The notes beneath the pieces were generated by a model that worked only from the letters and a program-made list of their open reading frames with translations, was not told the origin of the DNA and ran no database searches. Both the position numbers and the translations under genes were made by a program. 64,000 bases of DNA. Origin: an uncultured Eubacterium sp. Its GTDB lineage: Bacteria > Bacillota > Clostridia > Lachnospirales > Lachnospiraceae. The stretch is from contig CAMUHY010000003.1 of assembly GCA_947088865.1 (NCBI GenBank), forward strand, positions 124,001 to 188,000, in the 5' to 3' direction. The first letter of the stretch is position 1; each line of letters opens with the position of its first letter. Shown in pieces: positions 1,048 to 14,486 of the stretch.

Positions 1048-1275
1048 TTATTCAGTTATCACTTCAAACTTATCTTTTCCAATAATGACTGCTATAGAAC
1101 CGCCACTCGCCCATGAACCATGAATCTGACCAGCATCATCTATAAAATCCACTATAAAAATATCTCCTTCTTCTTTCGGTGTAAATTCATCCTCAATCGG
1201 CTCTGTAAGCCTTAGTTTTGTTCCATGTGGATACCTCATTCTATAATAAGTGGCTTTATTGATTATCGGACTCAA
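1048..1275 (-). CDS. DUF4314 family small protein
   Basis: 75 aa. The core YPHGTKLRLTEP, then DIFIVDFIDDAGQIHGSWAS and a C-terminal GKDKFEVI, follow the DUF4314 pattern: P-x-G-T near the N-terminus, V-D-D-x-G-x-I-H-x-W, G-x-D-x-F-E-V. The family is found mainly in phages and conjugative elements of Firmicutes and its function is unknown. The start is a TTG, chosen because GGAGG lies 9 nt upstream; the first in-frame ATG (residue 13) has no such site. The gene overlaps a tiny upstream ORF and is probably the last gene of its unit. Confidence 0.75.
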   Translation of the reverse strand: MSPIINKATYYRMRYPHGTKLRLTEPIEDEFTPKEEGDIFIVDFIDDAGQIHGSWASGGSIAVIIGKDKFEVITE

Positions 1276-1774: not shown

Positions 1775-3268
1775 TTAAACCAAGAAAATCTTACCATATT
1801 CCTTCTCGATTTCCTCTTTTGTCATGCCTTCCAGTATCTCCCATGAATAAGAAAACGGTTCTTCCTCAATCTCTTCTTCCTGCTCTGCTCCATACAAATG
1901 GGCGTTATCCTCCGCCAACTCATACCCCAAAGCATTTAAGTAATCCTCATCAATACTCTCGACTTCATATACATCATCTTGTTTCTCGCCAACATGGTTG
2001 GTTCTTAAATGGAAAAGGACATACCAGTATTTTTTATCCTTATTATCAATACTTTCATCTGAAATTATATCTTCATTATCAATGATTTCTTCTAAATCTT
2101 CAGTCTCATTATCAATACTTTCAACTGAATTTTCACACTTATCATTACTCTCCTCTTGGGATATTGATGCTTCTTCTTTTTCCTCAAGATTTTCAAAAGA
2201 ACTCTGTTTTTGCTGCTTAGAATTAACAAGTATACTTCCTTCCTCCTCAAAATATTGCCAAAGCTCAGACATCAGATATCCCAAAAGCTCTTTTAAACGA
2301 ATATGGATATTTACCAGCTTTACATTGCCAGAGCCGCTTGCCTCGTTATACGCTTCATTACAATTATTTTCAAAAAACTGAATAACCACACTGGCATACT
2401 CATCTGCTGGAACTTGATGTTCCACTGCAATCTTCGCATTATACATTACAATAGGAATATTATTTTTACGGAGAAACTTATAAGTATTGCCTTGAAACGC
2501 CAAATTCAAGTAAGATACAAGCTGTTCTATCGCACGCCTTTTTTCCTCTGGATAATTATTTTTTATATGCTCTGCAAACCGCACACACTCCGCTGCACTC
2601 GCCGAAGTCTTTATACGAAATCCATCTGAGTAACGTTCATCTAACAGCATCATACATGTCAACAGCATTAAAAAATCATCTTCCCTGCGAAGCTGTGCTA
2701 CTGTCAGATTAAATGCAGTCTGAAAGAAAGGAGTCTCCACTAACTTATTGCACCAGTCCGCAAGCTCCATACCCATTTTCGGTCTTGCCTGTTGTATCTT
2801 ACTTAATGGCGTGCCTGCGTTTAACCTCGCAAAGGTTTCCTCAATCTCTTCATCAGTACAATTCTCAAGCTGATAGGATGTAAATCGATACCCCATAATA
2901 GTGAACTGTATATCATTATCCAGCTCTGAGAACTTTTTAAGCGAAATATCATACTCCTCCCCGTCAAGCACTACCTTCGGCGTTTTGGCATGAGTCATCC
3001 ACTCATCATTAATAAATGAAAATACGGTTGACAATCTCTGTTTCCCATCAAGGACTGAAAGATAATTCCTGCCATCTTTCGACTCTTTGCGGAAATAAAG
3101 GTTTGGGATAATATAATCGCTTAAAATACTGTGAATCAGCATAGATGCCGCAAGGTTGTTCCATTGACCGCTTGCTCGCTGTATTGGGCAGTCCATATCT
3201 AAGGTCTTGCTTTCACTGTAATACTTATACAAAGTCTTAATCCCTACTGGCAAATTGCTCTTTTGCAT
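1775..3268 (-). CDS. DUF262 domain protein (ParB/GmrSD-like) without an HNH domain
   Basis: 497 aa. The N-terminal half carries the DUF262 signatures: CPIQRASGQW near residue 27 and VLDGKQRLSTVFSFINDEW near 75-95. In GmrSD-type proteins this domain binds or hydrolyses NTP. There is a helical middle (to ~340), a long acidic Glu/Asp/Ser-rich linker (~345-415), and a C-terminal part (~415-497) with WYVLFHLRTNHVGE and AEDNAHLYGAEQEEE. I see no His-Asn-His DUF1524 nuclease motif, so it is not a complete GmrSD enzyme. A strong AGGAGG site precedes the ATG. Genes of this type in mobile elements are often called ParB-like or defence-related; the actual role here is unknown. Confidence 0.7.
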   Translation of the reverse strand: MQKSNLPVGIKTLYKYYSESKTLDMDCPIQRASGQWNNLAASMLIHSILSDYIIPNLYFRKESKDGRNYLSVLDGKQRLSTVFSFINDEWMTHAKTPKVVLDGEEYDISLKKFSELDNDIQFTIMGYRFTSYQLENCTDEEIEETFARLNAGTPLSKIQQARPKMGMELADWCNKLVETPFFQTAFNLTVAQLRREDDFLMLLTCMMLLDERYSDGFRIKTSASAAECVRFAEHIKNNYPEEKRRAIEQLVSYLNLAFQGNTYKFLRKNNIPIVMYNAKIAVEHQVPADEYASVVIQFFENNCNEAYNEASGSGNVKLVNIHIRLKELLGYLMSELWQYFEEEGSILVNSKQQKQSSFENLEEKEEASISQEESNDKCENSVESIDNETEDLEEIIDNEDIISDESIDNKDKKYWYVLFHLRTNHVGEKQDDVYEVESIDEDYLNALGYELAEDNAHLYGAEQEEEIEEEPFSYSWEILEGMTKEEIEKEYGKIFLV

Positions 3269-3928: not shown

Positions 3929-3950
3929 AAAAAAGCCGCCTTTTGGCGAC
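3929..3950 (-). terminator. intrinsic terminator after the retropepsin cluster
   Basis: On the minus strand GTCGCC-AAAA-GGCGGC forms a 6-bp GC-rich stem (one G-T pair) with a 4-nt loop, followed at once by six T. It separates the retropepsin cluster (4084-5506) from the DUF262 unit. Confidence 0.75.
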
Positions 3951-4083
3951 CTTTATCGTACCCCCAAAACAGTAAATCAATCATTTATCTAAAAAAATGA
4001 TATGACCTGTTTTATGAATACTATGATATACTTCCTTTAAAACTCATACACTGATTCATTTTCTTGAAAAAGTACCCCAAATA

Positions 4084-4398
4084 TCAATCCATGTCATAAT
4101 ACTGCCTGAAAATCATCGCATAATCCGATGGGCTTAAAAGTGGCTCTGTCTTGTACTCTTCCTTTGACATTATAATATGTACTGCTTCTTCTGGCTCTTC
4201 AAATGTTGGTATCAGGAATGTCTTTACTCCTACCATTCTAAATATTGTTTGATTGCTTAAAGCCTCTTGCTTGGTGTGACATACACTCATTACATTTGCC
4301 ATCTCTATTGCCCCAAAAGCATTACGCTTTACCGCTTGAGCCAATACAAAAGCATTTGGATACGCCCTTATAATACTGCTTACTTTCATCTGCTCCAT
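4084..4398 (-). CDS. small protein distantly resembling the flanking YPDQWVGL proteins
   Basis: 104 aa, no named family. The start at 4398 is chosen because a GGGTGGTGG purine run lies just upstream; the longer frame adds an unlikely N-terminus read through non-coding DNA. By eye it aligns with the two neighbours at 4552 and 5282: I-x-x-x-YPNAFVLA against I-x-E-K-YPDQWVGL, then GAIEMANVMSVCHTKQEAL against ATIESAVVKYVDKSKDEL. I infer a shared fold. It is the last gene before the terminator at 3929-3950. Confidence 0.55.
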   Translation of the reverse strand: MEQMKVSSIIRAYPNAFVLAQAVKRNAFGAIEMANVMSVCHTKQEALSNQTIFRMVGVKTFLIPTFEEPEEAVHIIMSKEEYKTEPLLSPSDYAMIFRQYYDMD

Positions 4399-4551
4399 TA
4401 TTTTACCACCACCCTTTATTGTTTGATGGTATGGTAGTATAACTCTAAAACAGAGTATTTTCAAGGTTATATCAGGAAAAAGATGAGAAATATCAAAGGG
4501 TAACGAGAGGCTTAAAATAAAAGGGAAAATCATACCCCATTTTATAAAGAG

Positions 4552-4794
4552 TTAGCCAAAATACCTCACTACTCCTAATTGAAATACATTATCTGGTGTT
4601 GTATACCTACCTAATATTTCTCCATTTGTTTGAATCTGCATTAATGTTAACTCATCTTTTGATTTATCTACATACTTTACAACTGCTGACTCTATTGTAG
4701 CATCGTTATCTGGCTTATATTTTACCTCAATTAATCCTACCCACTGGTCAGGATATTTTTCTTGAATCTCTTTCCATGTTAATCTCTCTGGCAT
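4552..4794 (-). CDS. YPDQWVGL small protein, copy 1
   Basis: 80 aa, beginning MPERLTWKEIQEKYPDQWVG and ending near YTTPDNVFQLGVVRYFG. It is a close paralogue of the protein at 5282-5506; the first ~20 residues differ at only one position. The start at 4794 has AAGGAG 8 nt upstream, whereas the longer frame's ATG lies before that site. It sits 33 nt downstream of the retropepsin gene. I have seen similar small proteins beside predicted retropepsins in other bacteria, but no function is established to my knowledge. Confidence 0.65.
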   Translation of the reverse strand: MPERLTWKEIQEKYPDQWVGLIEVKYKPDNDATIESAVVKYVDKSKDELTLMQIQTNGEILGRYTTPDNVFQLGVVRYFG

Positions 4795-4827
4795 ATAAAG
4801 AACTCCTTGCATACCCCAATTTATACT

Positions 4828-5280
4828 CTATTGATACAAAATATACAGTCTACCATTTGAATCTTCTATTCTTAAATTTCTAACAATACTTTCTCCATCT
4901 GGTACAGTCACATTTAACTTATGATTTTTGTTATCAATCTCATAAATTAGATTGTGGAACATCGTGGCACTTAATATAATATGGTAAGGAACATTCTTTA
5001 AATCATTGTATGAAATAATTGCCATCTCAGGAAAAATAAGTTTACCAATAGCTATACTTTGTAATCGGTATAAATTTCCATTTGTTTCTCCACCAAACCC
5101 ACTAAATTTAACATTTTCTTTTATCTTAGTTGCACCAATACTTATCAATGCTTCTTCTGGTGCTGTCCATATTGGGAATAATGCTCCTGTATCTAAAAGT
5201 GCATTTAATCCATGCCAATTATTTAAATATATAATTGGTCTTTGAAATTTCTCATTCAATATCATTGTAAACTGTTCCAT
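4828..5280 (-). CDS. retropepsin-like aspartic protease family protein
   Basis: 150 aa. The motif LLDTGALFPIW (about residues 30-40) is a D-T-G-A active-site loop with the hydrophobic flanks expected of a retropepsin half-barrel. FSGFGGETNG (~58-67) and FPEMAIISYND (~83-93) fit the following flap and strand regions. The size suits a single-domain protease that would act as a dimer, since one DTG loop is present. There is no signal peptide or membrane segment, so it is probably cytoplasmic. It starts one base after the stop of the 5282 gene (TAATATG), so the two are likely translationally coupled. Substrate and role are unknown. Confidence 0.7.
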   Translation of the reverse strand: MEQFTMILNEKFQRPIIYLNNWHGLNALLDTGALFPIWTAPEEALISIGATKIKENVKFSGFGGETNGNLYRLQSIAIGKLIFPEMAIISYNDLKNVPYHIILSATMFHNLIYEIDNKNHKLNVTVPDGESIVRNLRIEDSNGRLYILYQ

Positions 5281-5281
5281 A

Positions 5282-5506
5282 TTAGTACCACACTGTTCCT
5301 AACTGAAATACATTATCTGGAGTAGTGTAACAACTGAAAATTTCATCTTTTATCTGCATCATAAGCAGCTCATCTTTTGATTTATCTACATACTTAACAA
5401 TAGCAGACTCAATGTTAGAATCATTTTTCCATTTAATATCTACTAATCCTACCCACTGGTCAGGATACTTTTCTTGAATTTCATCCCATGTTAATCTCTC
5501 TGGCAT
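5282..5506 (-). CDS. YPDQWVGL small protein, copy 2
   Basis: 74 aa, beginning MPERLTWDEIQEKYPDQWVG and ending YTTPDNVFQLGTVWY. It is a paralogue of 4552-4794, with most differences in the middle where this copy is shorter. A strong AGGAGGTG site precedes the ATG and a good promoter lies at 5573-5601, so this is the first gene of the cluster. Two copies flanking a protease gene suggest a duplication of the partner gene. Confidence 0.65.
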   Translation of the reverse strand: MPERLTWDEIQEKYPDQWVGLVDIKWKNDSNIESAIVKYVDKSKDELLMMQIKDEIFSCYTTPDNVFQLGTVWY

Positions 5507-5572
5507 ATAAAAACACCTCCTCTGTCGATACCCTATTTATTGTAAATGCTATATCAAATTACCTTTAGTTAT

Positions 5573-5601
5573 ATTATACCTCTTGTTTTAATACTATACA
5601 A
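5573..5601 (-). promoter_or_regulatory. sigma-A type promoter for the retropepsin cluster
   Basis: On the minus strand TTGTAT and TATAAT are separated by exactly 17 nt, about 70 nt upstream of the 5506 start. Confidence 0.55.
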
Positions 5602-5610
5602 CTTCTATTT

Positions 5611-14015: not shown

Positions 14016-14486
14016 TTAGCCTTCCTCAATAAGTGACACAATATCAAGCAATGAAATCAATTCATCTTTGCTCTTGCCTATGCCGCTTATATATCCAGAA
14101 GCTGCCTCGTCAAGCGTCGTCTTATTTGCTTTTTCAACGTCTTTATTCTCCAAAGTGACAACCTCTTTAACTTGGTCTACAATAACACCTATGGTTGCTG
14201 TATCAACCTTTAAAATAATAATTCTAGTTTTATCTGTATAGTCATCATCTTCCAATCCTAACTTTAATCGAATACTCATTACAGGTACAATTTCTCCTCG
14301 AAGATTAATGACACCTTTATAATAATGCTGTGATTTAGGAACTCTTGTAATTCTTTGATTCCTTACAATATTATCAATATATTGTATATTAATGCCATAT
14401 TGTTCATTGCCGATTTTTACAACAATATACTGCACTGCAATAGCATTATTTTCTTCATTCTTATCTAATGCTTTTACTTCTTCCAT
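14016..14486 (-). CDS. cheW: chemotaxis adaptor CheW
   Basis: 156 aa. A single CheW domain: QYIVVKIGNEQYGINIQYID (~19-38), RITRVPKSQHYYKGVINLRG (~49-68), then IGVIVDQVKEVVTL (~103-116). It couples CheA to membrane receptors. It lies between cheA and cheC and ends with a short acidic tail. Confidence 0.95.
   Translation of the reverse strand: MEEVKALDKNEENNAIAVQYIVVKIGNEQYGINIQYIDNIVRNQRITRVPKSQHYYKGVINLRGEIVPVMSIRLKLGLEDDDYTDKTRIIILKVDTATIGVIVDQVKEVVTLENKDVEKANKTTLDEAASGYISGIGKSKDELISLLDIVSLIEEG

What the first reader, a model, noticed from the sequence alone, without database searches (positions are those of the whole stretch)
4084..5506. Retropepsin-like protease nested among three related small proteins: candidate uncharacterised system
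Seen: a DTGA-motif protein (4828-5280) lies between two near-identical ~80-aa proteins (MPERLTW...YPDQWVGL), and the next gene (4084-4398) aligns with them by eye at YPNAFVLA and at IEMANVMSVCHTKQEAL. The set has its own promoter (5573-5601), coupled start/stop at 5280-5282, and a terminator (3929-3950). Inference: a partner gene was duplicated and diverged around a protease, as in toxin/antitoxin, processing or immunity modules. Known: retropepsins are dimeric aspartic proteases; no role for this pairing is established to my knowledge.
Basis: partly seen in the sequence, partly recalled or inferred. Interest (0 to 1): 0.75.

Follow-up and report, generated by a model that had tools for sequence, protein, structure and literature searches.

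The report
Small-protein–retropepsin pair, PDC-M08-like
A bacterium carries a tightly coupled pair of genes, a tiny protein and an HIV-protease-like enzyme, and the same partnership recurs in related bacteria, which makes it a good but still untested candidate for a defence or toxin-antitoxin-like switch.

Summary
RP (4828-5280) is a single-lobed retropepsin: AlphaFold pLDDT 89, best PDB match the Rickettsia retropepsin APRc, E 9.1e-6. U1 (5282-5506), just upstream, belongs to a small-protein family with a W..I...YPDQWVGL motif and no fold match in the PDB. In 397 genomes of the window's family, all 11 intact RP genes have a U-like neighbour (four judged on motif and position), while 10 loci keep U with RP broken or absent. 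U is remotely homologous to PADLOC's PDC-M08A, and PDC-M08B is a retropepsin: the same architecture is already listed as a phage-defence candidate, for which I found no validation. The window RP matches no PDC-M08B model, so this is a divergent sister branch, not a filed member. Most retropepsins I surveyed outside the family were PDC-M08 itself. The window copy lies in a ~22 kb island beside tsf that also encodes a SIR2-like protein. Best reading: an effector protease held by its cognate small partner; that mechanism is inferred. The third protein, D, is only a possible relative.

The parts
5282..5506 (-). U1: 74-aa small partner protein (MPERLTWDEIQEKYPDQWVGL...)
   Evidence: family of 40 aligned members; AlphaFold model pLDDT 83; PADLOC PDC-M08A E 0.0004
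4828..5280 (-). RP: 150-aa single-domain retropepsin-like aspartic protease, DTGA at residues 30-33
   Evidence: Pfam PF13650 E 7.8e-5, 23.7 bits against a cut-off of 24.3; AlphaFold pLDDT 89; Foldseek to APRc 5c9f E 9.1e-6
4552..4794 (-). U2: 80-aa paralogue of U1 without an RP of its own; perhaps the remnant of a second U-RP unit (inference)
   Evidence: 73% identity to U1; tandem U-RP units elsewhere
4084..4398 (-). D: 104-aa protein with YPNAFVLA, possible distant orphan relative of U; membership in the module not shown
   Evidence: PADLOC PDC-M08A E 0.0015; hhalign 55.6% to PDC-M08A, 2.7% to U; found only in the window genome among 200 genomes
5573..5601 (-). promoter-like site TTGTAT-17-TATAAT upstream of U1
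   Evidence: lies within a 61-bp stretch repeated at 84% identity beside deoB (the name deoB is recalled)
5516..5521 (-). AGGAGG ribosome-binding-like sequence of U1
   Evidence: sequence read
3931..3954 (-). terminator-like hairpin with T-rich tail downstream of D
   Evidence: the number of such sites is not above that in shuffles

Best explanation
The window holds a two-gene module, U1 then RP, plus an extra U copy (U2). It is a divergent branch of a wider set of small-protein/retropepsin pairs that includes the PADLOC candidate PDC-M08. Shown: gene order, start/stop coupling, recurrent pairing, conserved catalytic motif, purifying selection on both genes, correlated divergence of U and RP, and a place in a genomic island here. 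Inferred: U binds the RP dimer and keeps it inactive (or lets it fold only as a held complex); an event such as phage infection frees or activates RP, which cleaves a host or phage protein and stops growth or the infection. U would thus be the antitoxin or immunity side and RP the effector. U made first, in a coupled operon, would ensure that RP meets its partner at birth.
For: Pairing: of 397 genomes U is in 14 and RP in 10; all 10 RP genomes are among the 14 (hypergeometric 4e-17). My tally by hand: 11 loci with both genes intact, 10 with U intact and RP broken or absent (U2 of the window among them), 0 with RP intact and no U-like neighbour, 2 with U broken and RP broken or absent. PDC-M08 in 299 genomes: 14 pairs, 6 A alone or with broken B, 2 B without A. 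In the 42 loci (anchored on U; three of them, L024, L027 and L049, are the same DNA as loci) 45 of 48 U frames have 70 aa or more: 26 are followed by an intact RP, 9 by a damaged one, 9 by none, 1 is at a contig end; 26 of the 37 U with an RP-like frame next to them overlap it by 4 nt. U and RP distances correlate, Mantel r 0.88, 0 of 5000 permutations, 30 pairs. Median dN/dS 0.10 for U (22 comparisons) and RP (14). D30, T31 and G32 are invariant in the 29 full-length RP that I aligned. Island with a SIR2-like and an integrase-like protein, absent beside tsf in two same-genus relatives. Same architecture in a curated defence-candidate library.
Against: No toxicity, binding, cleavage or defence was tested. 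The U-first asymmetry is modest once gene length is allowed for: 2 of 18 combined, one-sided P 0.03 if the longer gene is twice as likely to be hit; 0.0013 under equal odds. Two PDC-M08B copies stand without A (L116, L117), and 8 of 24 genomes with a PDC-M08B match have no PDC-M08A match, six of these at weak E-values. One intact RP (L103) has DSG, not DTG. No Pfam DNA-binding domain in U, unlike many antitoxins. dN/dS near 0.1 is low for an arms-race gene and also fits a plain regulatory role. Defence-library names among 138 neighbours were mixed, with no control on random genes. No match to U1 or RP in the phage collection, none to RP in plasmids, no relative in viral contigs by a pattern-limited scan.
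Confidence: 0.4

Rival explanations
1. U is an obligate activator or substrate adaptor: RP is inert until U completes or steers it, and the pair is an accessory regulatory protease cutting a defined host protein, comparable in logic to the retropepsin RimB in the rimABK operon.
For: Near-obligate pairing, correlated divergence and strong purifying selection. [quoted passage not shown]
Against: U is kept as an intact gene where RP is broken or gone in 10 of 21 loci that have an intact U (tally), which an activator with no other job would not explain unless the losses are recent.
Confidence: 0.3
2. U is the substrate: RP processes U (or a U-like protein) into an active form, a maturation module.
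For: Adjacent, co-diverging genes; extra U copies next to one RP (L021, L032, window) could be several substrates of one enzyme.
Against: U is a compact, confidently predicted domain to about residue 60 with only a short floppy C-terminal tail; I saw no cleavage-like linker, which is a judgement by eye.
Confidence: 0.12
3. A selfish or addictive two-gene cassette carried by islands, with no benefit to the host beyond its own maintenance.
For: Patchy spread (14 of 397 genomes), tandem copies, decay of RP, and loci where the module or its island is bracketed by copies of a host gene's 3' end: prfA in L054 (36 bp), L028 (108 bp) and L027 (74 bp), tRNA-Arg in L055 (282 bp), a regulator-like gene in L060 (71 bp).
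Against: A matched control weakens the bracket argument: 4 of 39 modules against 4 of 80 random stretches, two of the latter being the same L027 repeat. prfA lies upstream in 8 of 42 loci from different records, which looks like long residence at one place.
Confidence: 0.15
4. The adjacency is chance and the small proteins are unrelated hitch-hikers.
For: None found for U and RP; D's kinship and role are unproven.
Against: Pairing statistics and U to PDC-M08A homology over 65 columns.
Confidence: 0.03

Closest known systems
PDC-M08 (PADLOC-DB 2.0.0, models PDLC04400 for A and PDLC04401-PDLC04405 for B)
   Same: Small W.E...YPxx[WF]V protein directly upstream of a DTG retropepsin, often overlapping; U to PDC-M08A profile match 95.3%, E 2.3e-8 over 65 columns.
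   Different: The window RP matches no PDC-M08B model at E up to 1; RP is 150 aa against 125-137 in the intact paired PDC-M08B seen, with ILSATMF where PDC-M08B has GLLGLD; U lacks the C-terminal G.R of PDC-M08A (by eye).
DUF5678 (PF18929) next to a clan-AA protease
   Same: In G571 a DUF5678 protein is followed at once by a DTG protein (L138:4938-5213 and 4575-4934), which matches PF13650 only at E 0.0055.
   Different: U members match DUF5678 only weakly (2 of 40, best E 0.034). DUF5678 was found in 1 of 199 genomes of the phylum, so the link rests on one locus.
APRc of Rickettsia conorii (PDB 5c9f, 5c9d)
   Same: Best structural match of RP, a bacterial retropepsin-like protease.
   Different: 19% identity; whether APRc has a small upstream partner was not searched.
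RimB in the rimABK operon
   Same: Operon-encoded bacterial retropepsin in an accessory module (PMC11957791, passages).
   Different: Its partners are the phosphodiesterase RimA and RimK, which polymerises glutamate, not a U-like protein.
Type II toxin-antitoxin modules
   Same: Small gene first, coupled to a second gene; partner kept without effector more often than the reverse.
   Different: Toxicity and neutralisation untested; no Pfam DNA-binding domain in U.

Membership tests
PDC-M08 (PADLOC) | Small component matches PDC-M08A | tested here: met
   U1 E 0.0004, U2 E 3.5e-5; 35 of 40 U members match at E up to 1, best 1.4e-6; hhalign 95.3%. Remote; PADLOC's own cut-offs were not available.
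PDC-M08 (PADLOC) | Protease matches a PDC-M08B model | tested here: not met
   Window RP: 0 families at E up to 1. In the reverse direction my RP profile reaches 9 proteases beside PDC-M08A at E 2.4e-4 to 0.05 with filters off.
PDC-M08 (PADLOC) | A directly upstream of B, same strand | tested here: met
   Window U1-RP and relatives.
PDC-M08 (PADLOC) | Anti-phage activity | not testable with these tools
   No paper in the library holds the term PDC-M08.
Retropepsin-like aspartic proteases (clan AA, family A2-like) | Single lobe of about 100-150 aa with D-T/S-G | tested here: met
   150 aa, DTG in the 29 aligned RP; DSG in L103.
Retropepsin-like aspartic proteases (clan AA, family A2-like) | Retropepsin fold | tested here: met
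   pLDDT 89; Foldseek E 9.1e-6, probability 1.00 to APRc.
Retropepsin-like aspartic proteases (clan AA, family A2-like) | Hydrophobic-hydrophobic-Gly element after the flap | tested here: inconclusive
   RP has I-L-S-A-T-M-F, Ser in place of Gly; the motif itself is recalled knowledge.
Retropepsin-like aspartic proteases (clan AA, family A2-like) | Active homodimer | not testable with these tools
   No complex prediction available.
Type II toxin-antitoxin | Coupled operon, antitoxin first | tested here: met
   in L105 the U-like gene comes second
Type II toxin-antitoxin | Effector lethal alone, neutralised by partner | not testable with these tools
   Needs the bench.
Type II toxin-antitoxin | Effector rarely found without partner | tested here: inconclusive
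   0 of 11 intact RP without a U-like neighbour, but 2 PDC-M08B without A; combined P 0.03 with length weighting.

The most novel reading that the evidence does not exclude
Single-domain retropepsins of Bacillota that lack a signal peptide, and perhaps those of prokaryotes at large, work mostly as pairs with a small YPxxW/YxGxW-type protein, several sequence families deep (U-RP, PDC-M08, and single loci of a YDGQW type, a YAGEW type and DUF5678 with its DTG protein). Together they form one large, uncharacterised class of protease-plus-inhibitor immune or toxin-antitoxin switches, in which an HIV-protease-like enzyme is the effector.
Probability: 0.3. Interest if true: 0.85.

Novelty: new variant of a known kind. 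Interest (0 to 1): 0.6.

Why it matters
Bacterial retropepsins have few known roles (recalled). None of the titles listed by my literature searches reports a defence or toxin-antitoxin system with a retropepsin effector (open-access library without a bioRxiv collection, lists capped at 8 to 20 titles, abstracts seen only in part). If the pair is an inhibitor-held protease it would be a new effector class in bacterial immunity. The small size of both genes, about 0.7 kb together, makes the question directly testable in laboratory strains. It also gives the PADLOC candidate PDC-M08 a concrete, falsifiable mechanism and points to a family that its protease models miss.

Tried and rejected

Counts judged by hand or with rows dropped. 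In the 397-genome tally the partners of L098, L102, L103 and L105 were accepted on motif and position (U profile E 0.047 to 3e-11); in L105 the U-like gene is downstream of RP. In the 45 full-length U three shorter frames were left out (two in L024, one in L059), one counted frame (L029:828-1064) is visibly degenerate, and L034 is a U fused to an RP tail, counted as without RP. In the PDC-M08 tally contig-end cases L066, L068, L080 and L086 and fragments were left out. Of the PF13650 hits, 15 of 19 have a small partner directly upstream, one (L163) cut by the contig end; L158 and L160 were counted because the script passed them over; partner motifs were judged by eye, whereas the 133 control genes were scored with a fixed, looser pattern. 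Fourteen of these 15 lie at PDC-M08 loci already met (13 of its 14 pairs' kind plus the contig-end case L163/L086), so this is not independent evidence; only L153 is new. The neighbour scan used 138 genes of 90-900 aa, up to two per side, from 41 of 42 loci.

Full report
What is in the sequence. On the minus strand lie U1 (5282-5506, 74 aa), RP (4828-5280, 150 aa), U2 (4552-4794, 80 aa) and D (4084-4398, 104 aa). U1 ends TAC TAA and RP starts ATG after one base; U1 has an AGGAGG site. The promoter-like site at 5573-5601 is exact for TTGTAT-17-TATAAT. U1 and U2 are 73% identical; no further copy of U was found in the window's genome. RP matches PF13650 just under its cut-off, E 7.8e-5. D is at best a distant relative of U: 24 of 2000 shuffles reach its score with U1, 340 of 2000 with U2; PADLOC PDC-M08A E 0.0015; hhalign 55.6% to PDC-M08A and 2.7% to U. 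Of 200 genomes only the window's own has D.

The pair recurs. A scan of genome contigs with U1 gave 42 loci; 23 record titles name Lachnospiraceae, most others name Eubacterium, Lachnoclostridium or similar, a few name unrelated families. Scripts found RP-like frames next to U in many of them. Of 45 U frames of 70 aa or more, 26 are followed by an intact RP, 9 by a damaged RP, 9 by none, and 1 is at a contig end; 26 of the 37 U frames with an RP-like neighbour overlap it by 4 nt. In the window there is a 1-nt gap instead. This set is anchored on U and so is biased towards intact U. In one set of 397 genomes of the window's family, U is found in 14 and RP in 10; all RP genomes are U genomes, hypergeometric 4e-17. 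Each of the 11 intact RP genes has a U-like neighbour; for L098, L102, L103 and L105 it is divergent and was accepted on motif and position. My tally of loci is 11 with both intact, 10 with U intact and RP broken or absent, 0 with RP intact alone, 2 with U broken and RP broken or absent. Loci L024, L027 and L049 of the contig scan are the same DNA as loci of this set, so the two sets overlap.

Both genes look like real proteins under constraint. Median dN/dS is 0.10 for U (22 comparisons) and 0.10 for RP (14), over the pairs of loci whose synonymous change was still measurable. U and RP distance matrices correlate at r 0.88 over 30 pairs, 0 of 5000 permutations as high. RP keeps R14, P15, D30, T31, G32, P36, W38, G61, F62, Y71, A105, F108 and Y113 in the 29 full-length sequences that I chose for the alignment; among four more divergent intact RP, three have DTG and L103 has DSG. 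Orphan or RP-damaged U copies compared with their nearest paired U give 0.07 to 0.24 in 7 of 14 cases; in the other 7 synonymous change was saturated, and such a comparison includes the paired lineage, so it does not prove selection after RP loss.

Structures. The RP model (pLDDT 89, pTM 0.83) matches the retropepsin APRc of Rickettsia best, E 9.1e-6, probability 1.00; most of the next rows are pepsin-like enzymes. The U model (pLDDT 83, pTM 0.69) is strand-helix-strand-strand-helix-strand with a floppy tail from residue 67 and has no significant match in the PDB or viral libraries.

Link to a known candidate system. U1, U2 and D hit PADLOC PDC-M08A, and 35 of 40 U members do so at E up to 1, best 1.4e-6. 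PDC-M08A is in 19 of 299 genomes of the phylum and PDC-M08B (model PDLC04402) in 24; 16 genomes have both, hypergeometric 5e-18. Eight genomes have B without A, six of them with weak matches only. At the level of loci there are 14 pairs, 6 A alone or with broken B, and 2 B without A. All 7 of the neighbouring proteases that I scanned match PDC-M08B models, best E between 2e-41 and 2.8e-52. So PDC-M08 is the same arrangement. U and PDC-M08A profiles align over 65 columns, 95.3%, E 2.3e-8. The window RP itself hits no PADLOC model, so I do not file the pair as PDC-M08; it is a sister branch. [quoted passage not shown] No library paper contains the term PDC-M08.

A broader class, with a caveat. 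In 199 genomes of the phylum, PF13650 gives 19 hits in 17 genomes at E up to 1e-5. Fifteen have a small gene directly upstream with a YPxxW/F- or YxGxW-type motif, against 5 of 133 control genes scored with a looser fixed pattern (Fisher P 3e-13). But 14 of the 15 lie at PDC-M08 loci already met, so this mainly restates PDC-M08; the one addition is L153 (YAGEW type). The four without are L156 (intact, no partner seen), L162 (start not conserved), L168 (unusual frame) and L171 (signal-peptide-like start, by eye). Single loci of further pair types were seen: YDGQWIFAIN with a retropepsin (L144) and DUF5678 with a DTG protein (L138).

Setting. In the window genome the module lies between tsf and a gene group that ends with pyrH, in an insertion of about 22 kb that is missing from the same place in two same-genus genomes (gene names recalled from sequence). 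The island encodes a SIR2-like protein (PADLOC E 9.6e-20, Pfam SIR2_2 E 1e-5), an integrase-like protein, a RelA/SpoT-like protein and a second DTG protein with a weak PDC-M08B match, E 0.0041. Elsewhere a prfA-like gene lies upstream in 8 of 42 loci, within 0.4 kb in 5 and 0.8 to 3.2 kb away in 3; one U-like/RP pair sits inside a trp-like operon. Copies of a host gene's 3' end bracket the module or its island in L027, L028, L054, L055 and L060, but a control on random stretches shows that such brackets are not clearly enriched. Among 138 neighbouring genes the commonest Pfam families were Resolvase (6), RF-1 (5), and seven families with 4 each, among them Recombinase, PrmC_N and HTH_3. PADLOC matched 189 families, of which 25 were shown; mad2 led with 5 genes, and single genes matched restriction-enzyme, methyltransferase, reverse-transcriptase and Cas1 models. 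Many such models also catch general enzymes (recalled), and I ran no control. PDC-M08B also occurs in 4 plasmid records; in the two that I read the gene upstream is an unannotated protein of the PDC-M08A type, by eye YPNSFV and FPDQWV.

How it probably works. The facts favour a physical partnership of U and RP with RP as an active protease. The order of genes, the coupling and the persistence of U without RP favour U as the restraining partner. The asymmetry is suggestive only: combined 16 to 2, P 0.0013 with equal odds and 0.03 if the longer gene is hit twice as often. An activator role for U, as in regulated accessory proteases such as RimB (PMC11957791, passages), is the main rival. The trigger and the substrate are unknown. 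A defence role rests on the PADLOC listing, the island and the patchy spread, all indirect.

Verdict. The new part is a divergent branch that the library's protease models miss, the near-obligate pairing in numbers, and a testable effector-inhibitor hypothesis.

Noticed in passing
window 1775-3268: 497-aa GmrSD_N (DUF262) protein matching PADLOC NsnA at E 5.3e-26 and phrog_2598 at E 2e-35; another possible defence gene in the same island.
   Followed up: no
L139:5754-8537 (own contig, 11,463-14,246 bases before the window start): 927-aa SIR2-like protein, PADLOC SIR2/pAgo-associated models, best E 9.6e-20.
   Followed up: partly
L139:13588-14196 and 14159-14428: A second DTG-containing protein (202 aa, weak PDC-M08B match) overlapped upstream by an 89-aa gene without a YPxxW motif; perhaps another pair of the same kind.
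   Followed up: partly
window 5551-5610 and about L139:2550-2610: A 61-bp stretch holding the U1 promoter-like site recurs at 84% identity upstream of a deoB-like gene about 23 kb away.
   Followed up: partly
L021, L027, L028, L031, L032, about 330 bp after RP: Conserved non-coding stretch with short degenerate repeats, ending in a copy of the prfA 3' end, in L021, L031 and L032 without an intact prfA seen in the locus.
   Followed up: partly
L142:3189-3926: A U-like/RP pair sits inside a trp-like operon between trpG-like and trpD-like genes with almost no spacing (gene names recalled from sequence).
   Followed up: no
L106:176-646 and 986-1456: 156-aa U proteins that seem to hold two YPxxW-like motifs each (by eye), in tandem beside truncated RP frames.
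   Followed up: no
window 1048-1275 and 1355-1771: DUF4314 and DUF3846 genes in the same region.
   Followed up: no
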